From NCBI GenBank assembly GCA_003141335.1, contig PLLR01000113.1, positions 1 to 35,484 of the forward strand: a stretch of DNA of 35,484 nucleotides. The letters are read 5' to 3'. Position 1 is the first letter of the stretch; each line of letters opens with the position of its first letter. Positions 843 through 35,484 of the stretch are shown in pieces. The notes beneath the pieces are model-generated. The model saw only the letters and a program-made list of their open reading frames with translations, made no database searches and was not told the DNA's origin. The stretch comes from Methanoregula sp. (GTDB lineage Archaea; Halobacteriota; Methanomicrobia; Methanomicrobiales; Methanospirillaceae). Position numbers and translations under genes: made by a program.

Positions 843-1754
843 ATGACCCGGTACAGCATTTTTGCCCTCACCGTACTTCTCATTTTTTGTATTCCTGGTA
901 TTGCAGGTGCGGCACCTGTTTCTCCGGATTCATCGATCACGTACACAATCACGGTCCAGGAGGATGGTACGGGGGTCTGGCATGTGGAGTACCGGACACT
1001 CCTTACATCCGATGAGGACCTGGGGGTGTTTGACAGTTATGCCAAAAACGTATCAGCCCTCTACCTTCCCCAGTTTCAGGACCTGATGCAGCGCTCTGCT
1101 GCACAGGCAGGAGCAGCCACGTCCCGGAAGATGGAAATTACTGATTTTTCCGGCGATGCAGTTATCCAGACTTCCCCTACGGGCAGGTACGGGGTTGTGT
1201 TCTATTCCTTCAGCTGGAGAGGGTTTGCAAAAACAGGAGACGAGCTTACAATCGGGGATGCATTAGCCGGCGGGCTGTACCTGGCAAAAGACCATACCCT
1301 CATCATCCGGTATCCCGCCGGGTATACTGTCAGTCTTGCAGAGCCTGCACCCGACCAGGTGCGTGACGGGCTTATCTGGTATGGCCAGCGTTCATTCGGG
1401 GCTGGAGAGCCCCGGCTGGTCTTTGAAAGATCCGGTTTTCCCTGGTTGCCAGTCCTCCTGGGTAGTTTCCTTGTCCTTATCGTGATCGCAGGGTTGTTTC
1501 TGGTCATTAAAAAAAGACGCCATAGTGAACCGGATGGTGCGGCAGTTCCGTTGTCTGAAGCGGACCTGGTCAGCCTTGAAGAAAGAATTGTCCAGCTGTT
1601 AAAAGCAGCCGGTGGGGAACAACACCAGTCCGAGATCGTCAAAAACCTTGGACTGCCCAAATCAACCGTAAGTGCCACGCTCAACGACCTCCACCGGCGT
1701 GGTGTTATCCAGAAAGTAAAAAAGGGAAGGGAAAATCTCATACGGCTGACCTGA
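843..1754 (+). CDS. Membrane-anchored winged-helix transcriptional regulator
   Basis: About 303 residues. The protein opens with a signal peptide (hydrophobic core ALTVLLIFCIPGIAGA), followed by an extracytoplasmic domain of about 165 residues, one transmembrane helix (LPVLLGSFLVLIVIAGLFLV) and a stop-transfer KKRR. The C-terminal cytoplasmic domain of about 60 residues is a winged helix of the MarR/IclR-like type (EIVKNLGLPKSTVSATLNDL, then a wing with GVIQKVKKGRENLIRL). This build is common in methanogens and haloarchaea (DUF7345/DUF7343-like proteins) and suggests a one-component surface sensor that regulates DNA directly. I prefer ATG 843 to the in-frame GTG at 831 because gtgat at 831-835 then serves as a short ribosome site. 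Ligand and targets are unknown. Confidence 0.8.
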   Translation: MTRYSIFALTVLLIFCIPGIAGAAPVSPDSSITYTITVQEDGTGVWHVEYRTLLTSDEDLGVFDSYAKNVSALYLPQFQDLMQRSAAQAGAATSRKMEITDFSGDAVIQTSPTGRYGVVFYSFSWRGFAKTGDELTIGDALAGGLYLAKDHTLIIRYPAGYTVSLAEPAPDQVRDGLIWYGQRSFGAGEPRLVFERSGFPWLPVLLGSFLVLIVIAGLFLVIKKRRHSEPDGAAVPLSEADLVSLEERIVQLLKAAGGEQHQSEIVKNLGLPKSTVSATLNDLHRRGVIQKVKKGRENLIRLT

Positions 1755-1810
1755 TTTGAGGGTATGTGCCCGCGGAGATTATCATACGGGATACTTTTTT
1801 TGAAATTTCT

Positions 1811-1967
1811 ACACCCATATCCTAAAAATATGATAAACATCGCCACCCCCAAACAGACGCCCCCGCAGCGGTTCGAGAGCATTTTTATGAGTGTGATTCT
1901 AAAAAAACAGCCTTGCCCAGCGAGGCTAAAAAACGAGGCGGCAGAGCGACCTCATCAGGGGTGGGAG
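1811..1967 (-). repeat. Diverged, inverted copy C of a dispersed intergenic repeat
   Basis: The gene-free stretch 1755-2124 lies between two convergent genes. Read on the minus strand it shares ordered blocks with the two copies near the right end: CCCCTGATG.GGTCGC (1946-1960), then GAACCGCTGC (near 1865-1875), GGCG..GTTTATCATA (near 1830-1845) and TATGGGTG (1811-1818). The order and rough spacing match copy A at 33511-33753. The match is patchy and was found by eye, so it could be an old or partial copy. Nothing else is recognised in the rest of this gap. Confidence 0.5.
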
Positions 1968-2124
1968 ACATCAGAAACGAAATTTGATACCCTATCTGAC
2001 CCACACGAAATGACGATGAGCCTTTTTTTTAAGAATCGAATCCCTAAAAAAAGTATCTTTGCAGATCTGAGATGAAAAATTTTAAAAAAATGTCGCCCGG
2101 TTTACCATTTTTCCTGTCAACGGG

Positions 2125-3636
2125 TTATGAATTATGGGGTTGATACCGCTCAATAGTTCCATGAGCAATAAGCTTGTTTCCTTCAAGGACAGACACAGCA
2201 CCATGACCACCGCAAAGAAGGCATCGCCTGCTTGTGGAGGCAAGTACGACATCAGTTTCCTGCACGAGATCCAGCAGTGCCCTGCGCTCCTTTTTCGCAA
2301 GCTCACTATCCACATTTACCGAAGTGACAAGAAATGCTGCAAGTGAATTGTAGTCAGCACGCTCTTTTGTGAGACTTGAAAAGTTGATCACGCTGTCTGC
2401 AGCGAATAACAACCCCTGTTTTTGGGAATACAGGTAGATCTGCCCGTACGTATGTCCACCAAGTCCTTCCAGTACTTCCATCTCAAGATCCCCGATAGTG
2501 ACGGTACCGAGTACCGGAAAAATTCCCCGCATCGCTACCGGGTGGTCATTAAAGCATTGAACCCGTGGCGGGGAATTGAACTTTGAGAAAAGGTTGATCA
2601 TCTTGGTGTAGAACTCTTCGAGAACCGAGTGTTCGCTACGCGAGCCGTACGCGCGATTGTTCTTTTTGATGATTGCAAGCGTGCCTTTGTGCATGAAAAC
2701 CGGGGCAGTGAAAAACCCTGCAGCACCACAATGATCCGCATCCGCATGAGTTATGATGATTCGCGATACGTGTCGCTCATCGCAAAAACCATACCGCGAA
2801 AGCATTGACATTACATCATGGTGATAAATGCCATATCCGGTATCAATCATAACATTCTCCCCGGCAGTGGTAATCAGAAAAATATTCCCACCGCAGGGCA
2901 TCTGGAAGCAAAAAAGGGTTGAGTATTCTGTAAGGGAAAATCTCTGGACCTCTGCATAGAACTTTTCCTGTGTTGTTGCCCCCATTGTCTGCCCGGTTAA
3001 GAGTATACTTTCGAATACTTTCCGGGGGTCATTCCCGCGGTCCATCAGTTCCTGCACAATGTGATTTGTATCAGCAAGGAACGAGAGTAAAAAATCCTCT
3101 TCTGATTCTCCGATGAGTTCACGGAGGGCCTGGGCATACCTGACATAAAAAACCGTGTCATCGAGATGTTTTCCGGTAGTATCATATTCAATGATTTCAA
3201 GACGGTAGCGAGACTTCAGCTGGTCTAAAAGCTGGTCAACCACCTGGCTCTGTTCGAGGTTCAGACTGACGGTAAGACGGTCAGGATGTCTCCCTTTATC
3301 ATCAAAATCGATGAATGCAATGTTTGCTCCCACCGATGTCGTAAAGTTCAGGAAGTCATAGAGCGCACCGGGCTGGTGGGGGAGATAAAGACAGAACTTT
3401 AAAAAATTTAACGGTTTCAATGAAGTCTGGAGGTACCCTATCCTCGCAAGGTCACGGGTAATTTTCCCAAATGCTTCATCAGAAGCGGTAACTTCATAAA
3501 AGACTGTTGCGGGATCAATGCGTCGATCATACTGTATCCGATTGATATTGCCTTCATATTTCTTGAGGATCTCTGCTGCCCTGTGGAGTGATCCCGGAGC
3601 ATCTGGCATATGAGCGATGAAAGAAAATCTCTTCAA
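2125..3636 (-). CDS. ACT-ACT-metallo-beta-lactamase fold protein
   Basis: 503 residues. Two ACT-like regions fill roughly residues 1-75 and 80-160 (FIAHMPDAPGSLHRAAEIL; CLYLPHQPGALYDFLNF), each with the D/Q-P-G-x-L ligand-loop signature of amino-acid-binding ACT domains. The second half, from about residue 230, is a metallo-beta-lactamase fold with the metal motif THADADHCG, the GGHTYGQ histidine, the FAADS aspartate and a terminal CGGHG histidine. The middle of the first motif reads HxDxDH where HxHxDH is usual. The start is TTG at 3634-3636: a GGGGGAT ribosome site lies just upstream, and the nearby ATG at 3640 is out of frame. A hydrolase or sensor controlled by an amino-acid-like ligand is a reasonable inference; the substrate is unknown. 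Confidence 0.8.
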   Translation of the reverse strand: MKRFSFIAHMPDAPGSLHRAAEILKKYEGNINRIQYDRRIDPATVFYEVTASDEAFGKITRDLARIGYLQTSLKPLNFLKFCLYLPHQPGALYDFLNFTTSVGANIAFIDFDDKGRHPDRLTVSLNLEQSQVVDQLLDQLKSRYRLEIIEYDTTGKHLDDTVFYVRYAQALRELIGESEEDFLLSFLADTNHIVQELMDRGNDPRKVFESILLTGQTMGATTQEKFYAEVQRFSLTEYSTLFCFQMPCGGNIFLITTAGENVMIDTGYGIYHHDVMSMLSRYGFCDERHVSRIIITHADADHCGAAGFFTAPVFMHKGTLAIIKKNNRAYGSRSEHSVLEEFYTKMINLFSKFNSPPRVQCFNDHPVAMRGIFPVLGTVTIGDLEMEVLEGLGGHTYGQIYLYSQKQGLLFAADSVINFSSLTKERADYNSLAAFLVTSVNVDSELAKKERRALLDLVQETDVVLASTSRRCLLCGGHGAVSVLEGNKLIAHGTIERYQPHNS

Positions 3637-31786: not shown

Positions 31787-32768
31787 GAAATACCGCCCGG
31801 AAAAACTTATTGACATCATAGGACAGGATCCGGTCGTCCGCCACCTCTCATCCTTTGCAGCATCCAAAACCGTCCCCCACCTGATCCTCACCGGGCCGCA
31901 CGGTACCGGGAAAAGTGCGGCAATTGAATGCTTCGCAAAGGCGCTGTACCAGGAAAACTGGGAGTTAAATACCTCGGTTTTCCAGACTGCCGACCTCTTT
32001 TTGCAGGGAAAAGCCTACCTTGAACAGGATGACCGGTATGCCCATCTCTATGAAAAAAACCAGTCCCTGATCACGAATTTTAAATATATTATCAAGTGGT
32101 ACGCTTCCCTGCGCCCTCTTGATGCTGAATTCAAACTTATGGTTTTTGAAGATGCCCATACCCTCACAAGGGATGCCCAGCAGGCACTGCGAAGGATTAT
32201 GGAGCGTGCAAGCACTACATGCCGGTTTGTCTTTACCACAACGAACCAGAGTGCACTCATCCCTCCTCTCACTTCCCGCTGCCTGCCACTATTCTTTTCA
32301 CCGCTCAACCAGGATATCATGCTTCGCCACCTCCGTACCATCAGGGAACAGGAAAATTCCGGCAGGCACTCCTGTTCAGATGATGATCTTGAACTGATTG
32401 CACATGCAGCCCAGGGCGACATGCGCAGGGCAATCCTGCTCCTCCAGGCAGCTCTTGAAGCGGGACTATGCCAGGATCTCTTTACGATCGCCCAGTCAGA
32501 AACAGCAAACATAGCTGCTTCTGCGATTGATGCATTAAAAAATGGCGATGTGCACAACGCGATCCGCCGCTTCGAATCCCTGATGATTGACTACGGGCTT
32601 TCCGGCAGCGAAGTGTTCTTAGAAATCCGTACTATTGCGCAGCGCGAGTATAACGATCCCTCCCTCGCAATTGCGCTTGCCGACGCTGAGTACCGTATAC
32701 ACCACGGAAACAACGAATTTGTCCAGATGGGGGCATTTGCCTCCGGAATCCGTGAGGTCTTCCTATGA
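31773..32768 (+). CDS. Second RFC-like AAA+ protein with altered Walker B
   Basis: 331 residues. The N-terminus is almost the same as in rfcS (WIEKYRPEKLIDIIGQD), with an intact Walker A GPHGTGKSAA. However, Walker B reads VFEDAHTL where clamp loaders have LDEADAL, so the catalytic Glu region is changed. The arginine finger TSRCLPLFF and the collar domain are kept. Such a subunit could complete the ring and use ATP held by its neighbour, or serve as a structural partner. Some methanogens have more than one RFC small-type subunit. The start overlaps the ligase by 14 bases and the stop overlaps the methyltransferase start (ATGA). Confidence 0.85.
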   Translation: MLWIEKYRPEKLIDIIGQDPVVRHLSSFAASKTVPHLILTGPHGTGKSAAIECFAKALYQENWELNTSVFQTADLFLQGKAYLEQDDRYAHLYEKNQSLITNFKYIIKWYASLRPLDAEFKLMVFEDAHTLTRDAQQALRRIMERASTTCRFVFTTTNQSALIPPLTSRCLPLFFSPLNQDIMLRHLRTIREQENSGRHSCSDDDLELIAHAAQGDMRRAILLLQAALEAGLCQDLFTIAQSETANIAASAIDALKNGDVHNAIRRFESLMIDYGLSGSEVFLEIRTIAQREYNDPSLAIALADAEYRIHHGNNEFVQMGAFASGIREVFL

Positions 32769-33496
32769 GTGCTGTCAAGCAGAAGAAAATCCAGGAGCAC
32801 TATGATACCATTGCTGATATCTATGATCTCCATTACGACCAGCGCCGGGGACGATGCTATCATACCCACATAAGCACCCATATCATGGATGTTCTGCCAA
32901 AAGGGGGAAAACTCCTTGATATTGGATGCGGAACGGGTCTTTTTGTAAAGAGATATATCGATGAGGGCGGCAGTGCCATCGGACTCGACATCAGCAGAAA
33001 AATGATCGAACGGGCTCAACGCAGGTGCACAACATGCGATTATATGGTCGGGACCGGGGAGAAAATTCCTTTTTGTGACAATTCATTTGATGCGGTTTCG
33101 AGTCTGCTTGTGTTCAGTTACATAAAAGATCCGGAATCTATGCTGAGGGAAGCATACCGGGTTTTAAAACCCGGGGGTGCAATTGCAGTCTGCACGCTGG
33201 GAAAAAAACTCATCACCCGGGGAATACCGGTGATCTACCAGATCAGTGAAAAAATCAATGTGAAACATCTCGTTATGAAGGATTTTGGAGAGCGCTACTA
33301 TGACAAGGAGGAGATGTCTGACCTTTTTACCCGTGCTGGATTTTCAGATGTCAGGATTAAATGGTGTTCCTTTGCCCATATCAACATGATCGGTCCCCTC
33401 TTCCTTCTTGCCCAGAAGATTGAACCATTCGTTGAAAAGAGCGTCCCGCAACTTGCCTATAACATCTGTGTGAGCGGAAAAAAACCACGAAAATAA
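32765..33496 (+). CDS. Class I SAM-dependent methyltransferase (UbiE/Methyltransf_11 type)
   Basis: 243 residues. SAM-binding loop LLDIGCGTGLFVKRY, the acidic residue after beta-2 in AIGLDISRKMI, FDAVSSLLVFSYIKDP and YRVLKPGGAIAVCTLG are all standard. The substrate (small molecule, lipid or quinone-like) cannot be read. It is the last gene of the long plus-strand run and overlaps the RFC-like stop by 4 bases. Confidence 0.85.
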   Translation: MSAVKQKKIQEHYDTIADIYDLHYDQRRGRCYHTHISTHIMDVLPKGGKLLDIGCGTGLFVKRYIDEGGSAIGLDISRKMIERAQRRCTTCDYMVGTGEKIPFCDNSFDAVSSLLVFSYIKDPESMLREAYRVLKPGGAIAVCTLGKKLITRGIPVIYQISEKINVKHLVMKDFGERYYDKEEMSDLFTRAGFSDVRIKWCSFAHINMIGPLFLLAQKIEPFVEKSVPQLAYNICVSGKKPRK

Positions 33497-33510
33497 AAAA
33501 AAGGTGATTC

Positions 33511-33753
33511 ATCGTTAAGGAATGCAAACGGATTATCGTCAAGCAATGTACTTATGAGATTTCTCTCCCCCTGATGGGGTCGCCGCTGGGCAGGACGGTT
33601 TATCCCGATCACTTTTTAGTTCATGGATGGTTGAAATAAAGCCGTTTGATCGATTATATTGCCCCATACTCTGAACCGACTGAACCGCTGCACAAAGAAT
33701 CCCCTTCGGCGGCGGCGTTTATCATACAGGGGTATGGGGGTATCACCCCCCAT
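33511..33753 (+). repeat. Dispersed repeat, copy A
   Basis: Parallels copy B at 35330-35470. The first about 80 bases (from atcgttaagg to the CCTGATGGGG hairpin) are nearly identical to B, then a longer variable middle, and an end block GTTTATCATACAGG-GGTATGGGGG finishing in a hairpin (ATGGGGG at 33734-33740, CCCCCAT at 33747-33753). The intergenic stretch 33497-33897 also has an unexplained AT-rich part with two gtgt..taact segments near 33815-33860. No gene was recognised. Confidence 0.75.
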
Positions 33754-33897
33754 TAATGAAAATTTGGATGAATCATGATTATCCACCCATTTTTGATGAA
33801 AAGCCAAAAAAATGTGTAACTGGTCCCGGTTCTAACAAATTCAGGTGTCTAACTCAACTGGTTTATGGTGGTCTTTATTGAGTAAACACCAAAAAAG

Positions 33898-35232
33898 TTA
33901 TGGGGATTTTCTCTTCCCGGCCAGATTCTTCAAAACCCGCTGTTTTTTCTGAATTGCAGAGTCTGCAGCCCGCATAACTCCCTTGCTCATCTCCTCAAAA
34001 TCGCGCATACCTGTATCGACAACCTTTTTCACCGGTGTATATGCCGATTCCCGGAACCGTGGAGAGAAATCGCATTCCTTGCCGTCAACCATAAGAACTG
34101 ATTCGGGCTTTCCCTTTTCAACGTACCCGATTTCATGCATCGCCACTCCCGCAGATTTCACTACCCGGCAGAGCTCTGCTGATACTTCAGGAGGCGCGAC
34201 AATGAGAAGGGCATCAAGGGATACGCCAAGATAATCGATCTGCAATGCTTCAAGCATGTCCTGGACATGGGGTTCGACTAAACTCCCTATCGCATGTTCA
34301 TCAATGACGATACGGCAACCGGCTGTCTCTGCCATCTCAAATGCATCGCCCCTCAACCCGCCATTCGTAACATCGGTCATCGCGTGGACCCGCAGGAAGA
34401 CATCGCTCTTCATCAGGGTTTCACAGGCAACAAGGAAATTAAGATTGATGGTCTGATCCACAACTTCGGGAAATCCTGAATAGATTGCCGCAGTCGCAAT
34501 GGTTCCTCCACCAGCTCCCTCGGTCATCAGCAGTACATCCCCGGGTTGCGTGGCTTTCCGGGCAGTGAGATGTTCGGCGACACCCACTGCCCCAACGCAT
34601 CCGGTAAGCCGGCTCCCAAGAACCATGTCGCCACCAATACGGAGAGTGGAACCGGTGACAAGCGGCACATCCATCGCCTCTCCAACGGTCGTGATACCGG
34701 CAGTGTAATCAAAAATCTTTGCCACATCTCCATCATCGGCTACATGGATATCTGAAAAGAGCATAATCGGTTTTGCTCCCATAACATAGACATCGCGGAG
34801 CGTCGCGCGCGTTACATGGAATCCTGCAAGGAAGGGATAATCGGAAAGCCGGGAATGCATGCCGTCAACAGTACAGATGATGTACTTACCCCCGGCACAT
34901 ACTGCTCCGGCATCATCCATTTCATCTACACCAACCGATGCCGAAGTTTTCCCGATGATGCGTGCGATCTGGCGATGGGCAAAAAAATCCCCTTTTCCCC
35001 GGGATCCCACACCGAACTCCCCCATTTTTACGCCAGCCGGATCAAGTTCAAAAAAATCACCGGTCAGACCCCGGGTGTTTTTCACTTCATCAATCACCGC
35101 GCGGGCAAAAGCGGATGCATAGGAGGGTTGTACCTTTTTAAATCCCAAAATATGATCGGTCAGGCTTTTTTGTAAGGTATCTTCGTCTGTCCCGTCCGCA
35201 ATTCTCCCGCGAACATACTCCTCAACATCCAT
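33898..35232 (-). CDS. AIR-synthase-related / HypE-like protein
   Basis: 444 residues from ATG 35232. The AIR synthase/HypE-type fold is visible: VGVDEMDDAGAV, the ATP-binding VDGMHSRLSDYPF, RDVYVMGAKPIML, LLMTEGAGGG, MTDVTNGGLRGDAFEMAE and a C-terminal domain. HypE and its relatives use ATP on a carbamoyl- or selenium-type substrate. This form resembles the COG1973 group annotated as hydrogenase-maturation-like, and could act in hydrogenase or cofactor assembly. The frame stays open to 35439, through repeat B, but the minus-strand box gctttttttatg near 35251-35262 puts a promoter just before 35232, so the message may be leaderless. Exact substrate unknown. Confidence 0.8.
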   Translation of the reverse strand: MDVEEYVRGRIADGTDEDTLQKSLTDHILGFKKVQPSYASAFARAVIDEVKNTRGLTGDFFELDPAGVKMGEFGVGSRGKGDFFAHRQIARIIGKTSASVGVDEMDDAGAVCAGGKYIICTVDGMHSRLSDYPFLAGFHVTRATLRDVYVMGAKPIMLFSDIHVADDGDVAKIFDYTAGITTVGEAMDVPLVTGSTLRIGGDMVLGSRLTGCVGAVGVAEHLTARKATQPGDVLLMTEGAGGGTIATAAIYSGFPEVVDQTINLNFLVACETLMKSDVFLRVHAMTDVTNGGLRGDAFEMAETAGCRIVIDEHAIGSLVEPHVQDMLEALQIDYLGVSLDALLIVAPPEVSAELCRVVKSAGVAMHEIGYVEKGKPESVLMVDGKECDFSPRFRESAYTPVKKVVDTGMRDFEEMSKGVMRAADSAIQKKQRVLKNLAGKRKSP

Positions 35233-35249
35233 AGGTTTCTGTACGTGCG

Positions 35250-35263
35250 AGAGACATAAAAAA
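35250..35263 (-). promoter_or_regulatory. Promoter box of the AIR-synthase-like gene
   Basis: The minus-strand box gctttttttatgtc is centred about 25 bases before ATG 35232. It is an AT-rich match only. Confidence 0.4.
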
Positions 35264-35329
35264 GCGGGGGATAATGCAGAATAACGGGGAGTACTATTGC
35301 ATTGAGATAACGAAAATGGGAAACATCGT

Positions 35330-35470
35330 ATCATTAAGGGATGCAAACGGATTATCGTCAGAAGCAATGTACTTATGAGGTTTCCCCCCGCCTGATGGGG
35401 TTGCGGGGGCGTCCCGTCGGGTGCAGCGGCGTTCATCATCTTCTGGGGTATGGGGGCATGTTGCCCCCAT
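35330..35470 (+). repeat. Dispersed repeat, copy B
   Basis: The first about 80 bases match copy A closely, with small gaps (atgcaaacggattatcgtc and agcaatgtacttatgag are shared). The copy ends in CATC-TTCTGGGGTATGGGGG and a perfect hairpin, ATGGGGGCA-TGT-TGCCCCCAT (35450-35470). The same blocks in the same order define copies A and C. The right window edge is close, so the copy may continue slightly beyond. Confidence 0.8.
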
Positions 35471-35484
35471 CTTTGTAATCCTCT

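What the first reader, a model, noticed from the sequence alone, without database searches (positions are those of the whole stretch)
33511..35470. Direct repeat pair flanking the AIR-synthase gene, with a third inverted copy at 1811-1967
Copies A and B share about 80 near-identical bases, then a variable middle and a conserved hairpin end. The ordered blocks also occur, inverted and diverged, in the 1755-2124 gap. The mix of strong conservation at the ends and variation in the middle suggests a non-coding mobile repeat or a structured RNA family. Recombination between A and B would delete the AIR-synthase gene.
Basis: seen in the sequence. Interest (0 to 1): 0.6.

Follow-up and report, generated by a model that had tools for sequence, protein, structure and literature searches.

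The report
Jumping non-coding repeats beside methanogen gene
Three short non-coding DNA repeats in this methane-making archaeon are copies of a small mobile element that inserted separately, two of them on either side of one gene; the element's hairpin-rich core is shared by many relatives, which is more unusual than the copies themselves.

Summary
The repeats are real. A, B and C belong to a dispersed non-coding family: 28 matches in the 2.0 Mb own assembly, genus-wide in Methanoregula, and confined to one family in an order-wide sample. A and B are separate insertions: the closest relative and four others have both sites empty; C is absent from the closest relative. Intact family members are 184-296 bp with GGCTCTTCG-type inverted ends; 11 of 23 hand-picked two-ended copies have an exact 8-bp target duplication (shuffled mean 0.75). 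A 1286-bp ISL3 element with matching ends and a full ISL3 transposase exists in a sister genus. So this is a MITE family, most likely moved by ISL3 transposases, none of which was found in the own assembly. The core hairpins covary, but nothing shows RNA function. Unexplained: genome G006 carries many copies of the same core, six near-identical, without ISL3 ends or visible target duplications. The window copies themselves are damaged or have other ends.

The parts
33504..33890 (+). Copy A: whole inserted unit (about 387 bp), ends GTGATTC.../...GTAAACACC, flanked by AAAAAAG on both sides (33497-33503 and 33891-33897, low complexity)
   Evidence: Absent from the orthologous site in G022, G025, G004, G005, G012; boundaries read by eye from the alignment to the G022 empty site
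33671..33758 (+). Copy A: two-hairpin 3' core (HP1 + HP2)
   Evidence: Covariance model R1, E = 1.0e-7
35285..35484 (+). Copy B: inserted unit, left end truncated; continues to about contig base 35509, where the ISL3-type end GGCTCTTTGCTG lies, across a 2-N assembly gap just past the window
   Evidence: Site empty in five relatives; right end in L170
35386..35475 (+). Copy B: two-hairpin 3' core
   Evidence: Covariance model R1, E = 5.2e-10
1805..2022 (-). Copy C: type-2 copy, far end lost; the boundary near 1805 is uncertain by about 10 bases
   Evidence: Model hit 1779-1885, E = 8e-5; G022 continues with native DNA instead
1996..2022 (-). Copy C: surviving ISL3-type terminal inverted repeat GGCTCATCGTCATTTCGTGTGGGTCAG
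   Evidence: L185 right end
33898..35232 (-). AIR synthase-related gene lying between A and B (not part of the element)
   Evidence: PF02769 2.7e-17, PF00586 1.6e-10

Best explanation
A, B and C are old or damaged copies of one non-autonomous mobile repeat family (a MITE: short, no transposase gene, inverted ends). Inferred mechanism: an ISL3-type transposase supplied in trans recognises the GGCTCTTCG...GTGGGTAAG ends, moves the element, and inserts it into AT-rich intergenic DNA with an 8-bp target duplication. Shown: the insertions (empty sites), the paired ends and 8-bp duplications of intact members, and an ISL3 element with matching ends in a sister genus. Inferred: that this transposase class moved the own-genome copies, and that it was since lost from, or missed in, this draft assembly. 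The hairpin core between the ends keeps its base pairing; why is not shown.
For: 28 core matches in the own assembly at E <= 0.1. Both A and B sites empty in 5 of 5 relatives read at the junctions; C absent from G022. Exact 8-bp duplications in 11 of 23 hand-picked two-ended copies, 9 of them not homopolymers, against a shuffled mean of 0.75 and maximum of 5 in 5000. Eight of 28 own copies have both ends recognisable. G190 holds a 1286-bp element with the same ends (own ends match it at up to 22 of 27 positions; best of 1000 random 27-mers 14), duplication AGATAATC, and a 405-aa protein with all three ISL3 domains (PF01610 E = 2e-74, PF14690, PF13542); G176 holds another of 1286 bp with duplication TCCAGATT and a 405-aa frame. 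Element-bearing gaps are convergent in 33 of 79, other gaps of at least 100 bp in 53 of 248; divergent in 11 of 79 against 75 of 248.
Against: No ISL3 transposase in the own assembly and in only 3 of 39 genus genomes. A has other ends (GTGATTC / GGTGTTTAC), B has one ISL3-type end and no visible duplication, C has one end: none of the three window copies is intact. 12 of the 23 two-ended copies lack an exact duplication. Some own ends match the IS end at only 14-18 of 27 positions. Only 7 of 27 own, 4 of 89 other Methanoregula and 0 of 39 G006 core copies have both ends in an automatic test (random positions 19 of 2000).
Confidence: 0.82

Rival explanations
1. The core is a structured RNA: it is transcribed, folds into the 5' hairpin, HP1 and HP2, and does a job for the cell or for the element's spread; the MITE ends are only one of its vehicles.
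For: 9 of 16 core pairs have two-sided compensatory changes, 52 cells against 11.7 in shuffles, falling to 2-7 cells when partners are slid; the 5' hairpin gives 5 of 12 pairs, 20 cells against 5.4; conserved unpaired linker and UUCG/GUCG loops; the core is shared by copies with different ends.
Against: G-U 48 against A-C 25, with 19 of the G-U from one pair, so no clear strand; mixed orientation to neighbours (++ 18, -- 27); copy A folds like shuffles; alignment A2 is fitted to the model and its sources were hand-picked; paired arms can also be kept in step by template switching in DNA (recalled).
Confidence: 0.15
2. It is a REP or PATE-type element moved by a single-strand (Y1, IS200/IS605 or RAYT) transposase acting on the hairpins.
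For: Hairpin-rich, and the recent G006 form shows no inverted ends of the ISL3 type and no duplications.
Against: Y1_Tnp (PF01797) in 5 of 39 genus genomes and in none of G000, G003, G006, G009, G034; intact own-type copies have inverted ends and 8-bp duplications; no conserved tetranucleotide seen by eye next to the six recent G006 copies.
Confidence: 0.04
3. A and B arose by a local duplication of sequence around the AIR synthase gene, not by transposition.
For: They are direct repeats close together.
Against: Many further copies elsewhere; A and B have different extents and neither is present in five relatives that keep the gene.
Confidence: 0.01

Closest known systems
ISL3-family MITE of Methanosarcina acetivorans (partner ISMac21; PMC3852290, Table 4, section 16 read)
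   Same: Short gene-less repeat in a methanogen with inverted ends of an ISL3 element (22 bp) and direct repeats (7 bp), in several copies
   Different: 179 bp, 6 copies, one species; here 184-296 bp, genus- to family-wide, with a conserved, covarying two-hairpin core. That paper's main text does not mention Methanoregula
ISL3-family transposon Tn7546 (PMC9782665, passages read)
   Same: Ends GGGTCTTCGGA and 8-bp target duplication
   Different: Carries a transposase and mercury genes; the present repeats are too short to carry one
ERIC, BOX, RUP and Correia-type repeats of bacteria (recalled)
   Same: Dispersed, intergenic, structured, modular short repeats
   Different: Other hosts, sequences and ends; not compared here by any tool
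REP / RAYT and PATE elements (recalled)
   Same: Small, hairpin-rich, intergenic, many copies
   Different: No Y1 transposase in the core-rich genomes; ISL3-type ends and 8-bp duplications in the intact own-type copies

Membership tests
MITE (family as a whole) | Short, no transposase gene | tested here: met
   184-296 bp between ends, too short for a transposase; mechanically called frames do overlap some copies (1764-2075 over C; 28 of 139)
MITE (family as a whole) | Terminal inverted repeats | tested here: met
   GGCTCTTCG...GTGGGTAA at both ends of intact members in several genomes; a minority of all core copies
MITE (family as a whole) | Target-site duplication | tested here: met
   11 of 23 exact 8-bp, shuffled mean 0.75
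MITE (family as a whole) | Insertion polymorphism between relatives | tested here: met
   A and B sites empty in five relatives, C absent in G022
MITE (family as a whole) | Autonomous partner with the same ends | tested here: met
   L307 and L319 in genus g12 of the same family; L307 protein is ISL3; none in own assembly
MITE (window copies A, B, C singly) | Both ISL3-type ends and an 8-bp duplication | tested here: not met
   A other ends, B and C one end each
ISL3-mobilised | Movement by the transposase | not testable with these tools
   Needs a transposition or binding assay
REP/RAYT or IS200/IS605-derived (PATE) | Y1 transposase in the genomes that carry many copies | tested here: not met
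   PF01797 in 5 of 39; absent from G000, G003, G006, G009, G034
Known RNA family | Match to an Rfam model at its gathering score | tested here: not met
   Only tRNAs in the window and in 18 loci with copies
Structured RNA | Base pairs kept by compensatory change | tested here: met
   would be met by a DNA-level constraint too
Structured RNA | Transcribed strand favoured (G-U over A-C) | tested here: inconclusive
   48 against 25, 19 from one pair
Structured RNA | Transcript | not testable with these tools
   No expression data held

The most novel reading that the evidence does not exclude
The hairpin core is a cargo or engine that several kinds of mobile ends share: in Methanoregula it rides ISL3-type MITEs in some lineages, and in others (G006, with 42 copies in the 190 kb fetched around known hits) it has multiplied, recently and to 97-99% identity, with ends that have neither inverted repeats of that type nor visible target duplications. 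That would mean a structured RNA or DNA domain that drives or protects its own spread by a mechanism not yet described.
Probability: 0.15. Interest if true: 0.75.

Novelty: new variant of a known kind. Interest (0 to 1): 0.45.

Why it matters
A family-wide repeat that fills spacers in a widespread methanogen genus, and that our limited literature searches did not find described (open PubMed Central papers only). It gives markers of recent insertion and offers a test case for whether the inside of a MITE can be under selection for structure. The G006 form poses an open question on how it spreads.

Tried and rejected
Local duplication of the gene region: rejected by empty sites. Known RNA family: no Rfam match. 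REP/RAYT or IS200/IS605 origin: Y1 transposase absent from the core-rich genomes. Integron-like cassette (a gene between two direct repeats): considered, not tested by a tool; dispersed single copies and empty sites speak against it. Viral or plasmid spread: no exact HP2 match in viral contigs and no match of the 73-nt core in plasmids. A TSD scan of 36 G006 copies over many offsets gave a best z of 3.8 among roughly a thousand combinations, taken as nothing. A 33.6-kb concatenation of own flanks for a mass empty-site search was written to scratch and not used, being too long to paste. Rows dropped before counts: model alignment A1 used 60 of 98 candidates; A3 used 53 of 62; the 100 sources were hand-picked and left out most loci with insertions in HP1; one search left out L082 and L108 (and L150-L161 were not given to it); one search left out 11 of 139 hits and 1 of 28 own hits near sequence ends; the 23 elements were hand-picked from the 79 pairings (most of them chance) and. 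Own-genome copy number is a lower bound (150 of 610 candidates scored).

Full report
What is in the window. A and B are direct repeats (A finds B at E = 4e-20) flanking a minus-strand gene with both AIR synthase domains. C is an inverted, diverged relative. A covariance model of the shared 3' module (two hairpins, here HP1 and HP2; 91 positions, 16 pairs; built from 60 of 98 candidate sequences) finds all three again: A 33671-33758 (1e-7), B 35386-35475 (5e-10), C 1779-1885 minus (8e-5).

Copies elsewhere. The own assembly (2.02 Mb, 125 contigs) has 28 matches at E <= 0.1, 27 of them below 1e-3; 150 of 610 candidates were scored, so this is a floor. All 39 genus genomes, own included, match the own consensus by BLAST, G025 and G032 with a single weak match each. 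In 199 genomes drawn from the order, 43 match the model at 1e-6, all in the same family and in 9 of 38 genera. An exact search for HP2 in named genomes returned 92 stretches; the 80 rows listed are Methanoregula or Methanomicrobiales/Methanoregulaceae assemblies, save one labelled Methanomethylophilaceae, perhaps mis-binned. No exact HP2 match in viral contigs, none of the core in plasmids.

Insertions, not duplications. The region 32765-35484 has matches in all 39 genus genomes, its AIR synthase part in 38 (not G015). In G022, the nearest relative (92% identity), and in G025, G004, G005 and G012, the DNA runs straight through both sites. A is thus an insertion of about 387 bp with AAAAAAG on both sides; that match is low-complexity. 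B is an insertion of about 225 bp whose last 25 bases lie past the window across a 2-N gap; the flanks joined there are neighbours in all five relatives, so the join is sound. C is absent from G022, where native DNA continues; the genes on either side of C lie on different contigs in all five relatives searched, so its far flank could not be compared.

Ends and target duplications. Own copies fall into two related types by eye. Intact members, 184-296 bp in the cases listed, begin and end with GGCTCTTCG...GTGGGTAA. Of 23 hand-picked two-ended members from several genomes, 11 have an exact 8-bp duplication, 9 of those not homopolymers; shuffling the right flanks gives a mean of 0.75, maximum 5 in 5000. 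In the own genome 8 of 28 copies have both ends. The window copies are poor examples: A has other ends, B and C one end each.

The likely mover. Searching 108 genomes of the family for the end pattern turned up facing pairs 1286 and 2428 bp apart in G190. The 1286-bp one has an 8-bp duplication (AGATAATC) and encodes 405 aa with DDE_Tnp_ISL3, Zn_ribbon_ISL3 and HTH_Tnp_ISL3; G176 has a second of 1286 bp with TCCAGATT and a 405-aa frame. The 2428-bp one lacks a duplication. Own-genome ends match the IS end at up to 22 of 27 positions, against a best of 14 in 1000 random sequences; some own ends match at only 14-18. ISL3 transposase was not found in the own assembly and in 3 of 39 genus genomes. 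A published archaeal case with an ISL3 partner is a 179-bp, 6-copy MITE in M. acetivorans (PMC3852290, section 16 read); an 8-bp duplication and GGGTCTTCGGA ends are reported for an ISL3 transposon (PMC9782665, passages read).

Structure. On 133 matches the core keeps 97.3% of cells paired; 9 of 16 pairs change on both sides, 52 cells against 11.7 in shuffles and 2-7 when partners are slid. The alignment is fitted to the model and the sources hand-picked, so this leans towards the structure. The 5' hairpin, on 53 of 62 sequences aligned without a model, has 5 of 12 pairs and 20 cells against 5.4. G-U outnumber A-C mismatches 48 to 25, but 19 G-U come from one pair: no verdict on RNA against DNA. 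A whole copy A folds no better than shuffles. No Rfam match.

Where copies sit. Of 139 matches in 98 loci, 28 lie inside called frames (mostly short, probably spurious) and 13 at sequence edges; the rest are ++ 18, +- 36, -+ 17, -- 27 relative to the element. Element-bearing gaps are convergent in 33 of 79 and divergent in 11 of 79; other gaps of 100 bp or more, 53 and 75 of 248. My gene calls were simple longest frames.

What does not fit. In G006 the fetched 190 kb (20 regions chosen around known hits) hold 42 copies, none of 39 testable with both ISL3-type ends. Six are 97-99% identical over about 250 bp in unrelated flanks, with ends TGCTCTGTAG... and ...CATGGGAAATC, a subterminal inverted repeat (CCATGAAAATCG/CGATTTTCATGG), and no visible target duplication (a scan of 36 copies found none). 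One spacer between two conserved genes measures, from match coordinates, about 80 bp in G025, 341 in G000, 414 in G035, 1067 in G006, 2013 in G009 and 2600 in G003. So the core seems to spread by more than one route, and the second is unknown.

Verdict. It is a MITE family with, most likely, ISL3-driven movement (0.82), unusual for a conserved, covarying core that also travels with other ends. I found no description of it in the open papers searched, which is a narrow library.

Noticed in passing
window 1754-2125 (copy C): The genes on either side of C lie on different contigs in all five relatives searched, so C sits at a possible break in gene order.
   Followed up: partly
window 35484 (contig 35485-35486): The window ends at a 2-N scaffold gap inside copy B; the join is supported by the same neighbours in five relatives.
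   Followed up: yes
L067 1340-1500, L068 1140-1290: Non-coding parts of two genus ISL3 elements hold hairpins (such as GCGCAAAAG...CTTTTGCGC) that look, by eye, like 5' modules of some repeats (L061, L093).
   Followed up: no
L077, L085, L094, L097, L105, L119, L136: In some Methanoregula copies HP1 is extended by nested stems capped by C-ATCA-G loops; why these loops recur is unknown.
   Followed up: no
L226 and L220 (G006): Tandem copies share a GAAA-like junction, the second copy lacking the usual TGCTCTGTAGAAA start.
   Followed up: partly
window 33860-33890; L003 left end: A second kind of end, GTGWTTACTCAATAAAGACC, occurs on copy A and on one other own copy; its partner is unknown.
   Followed up: partly
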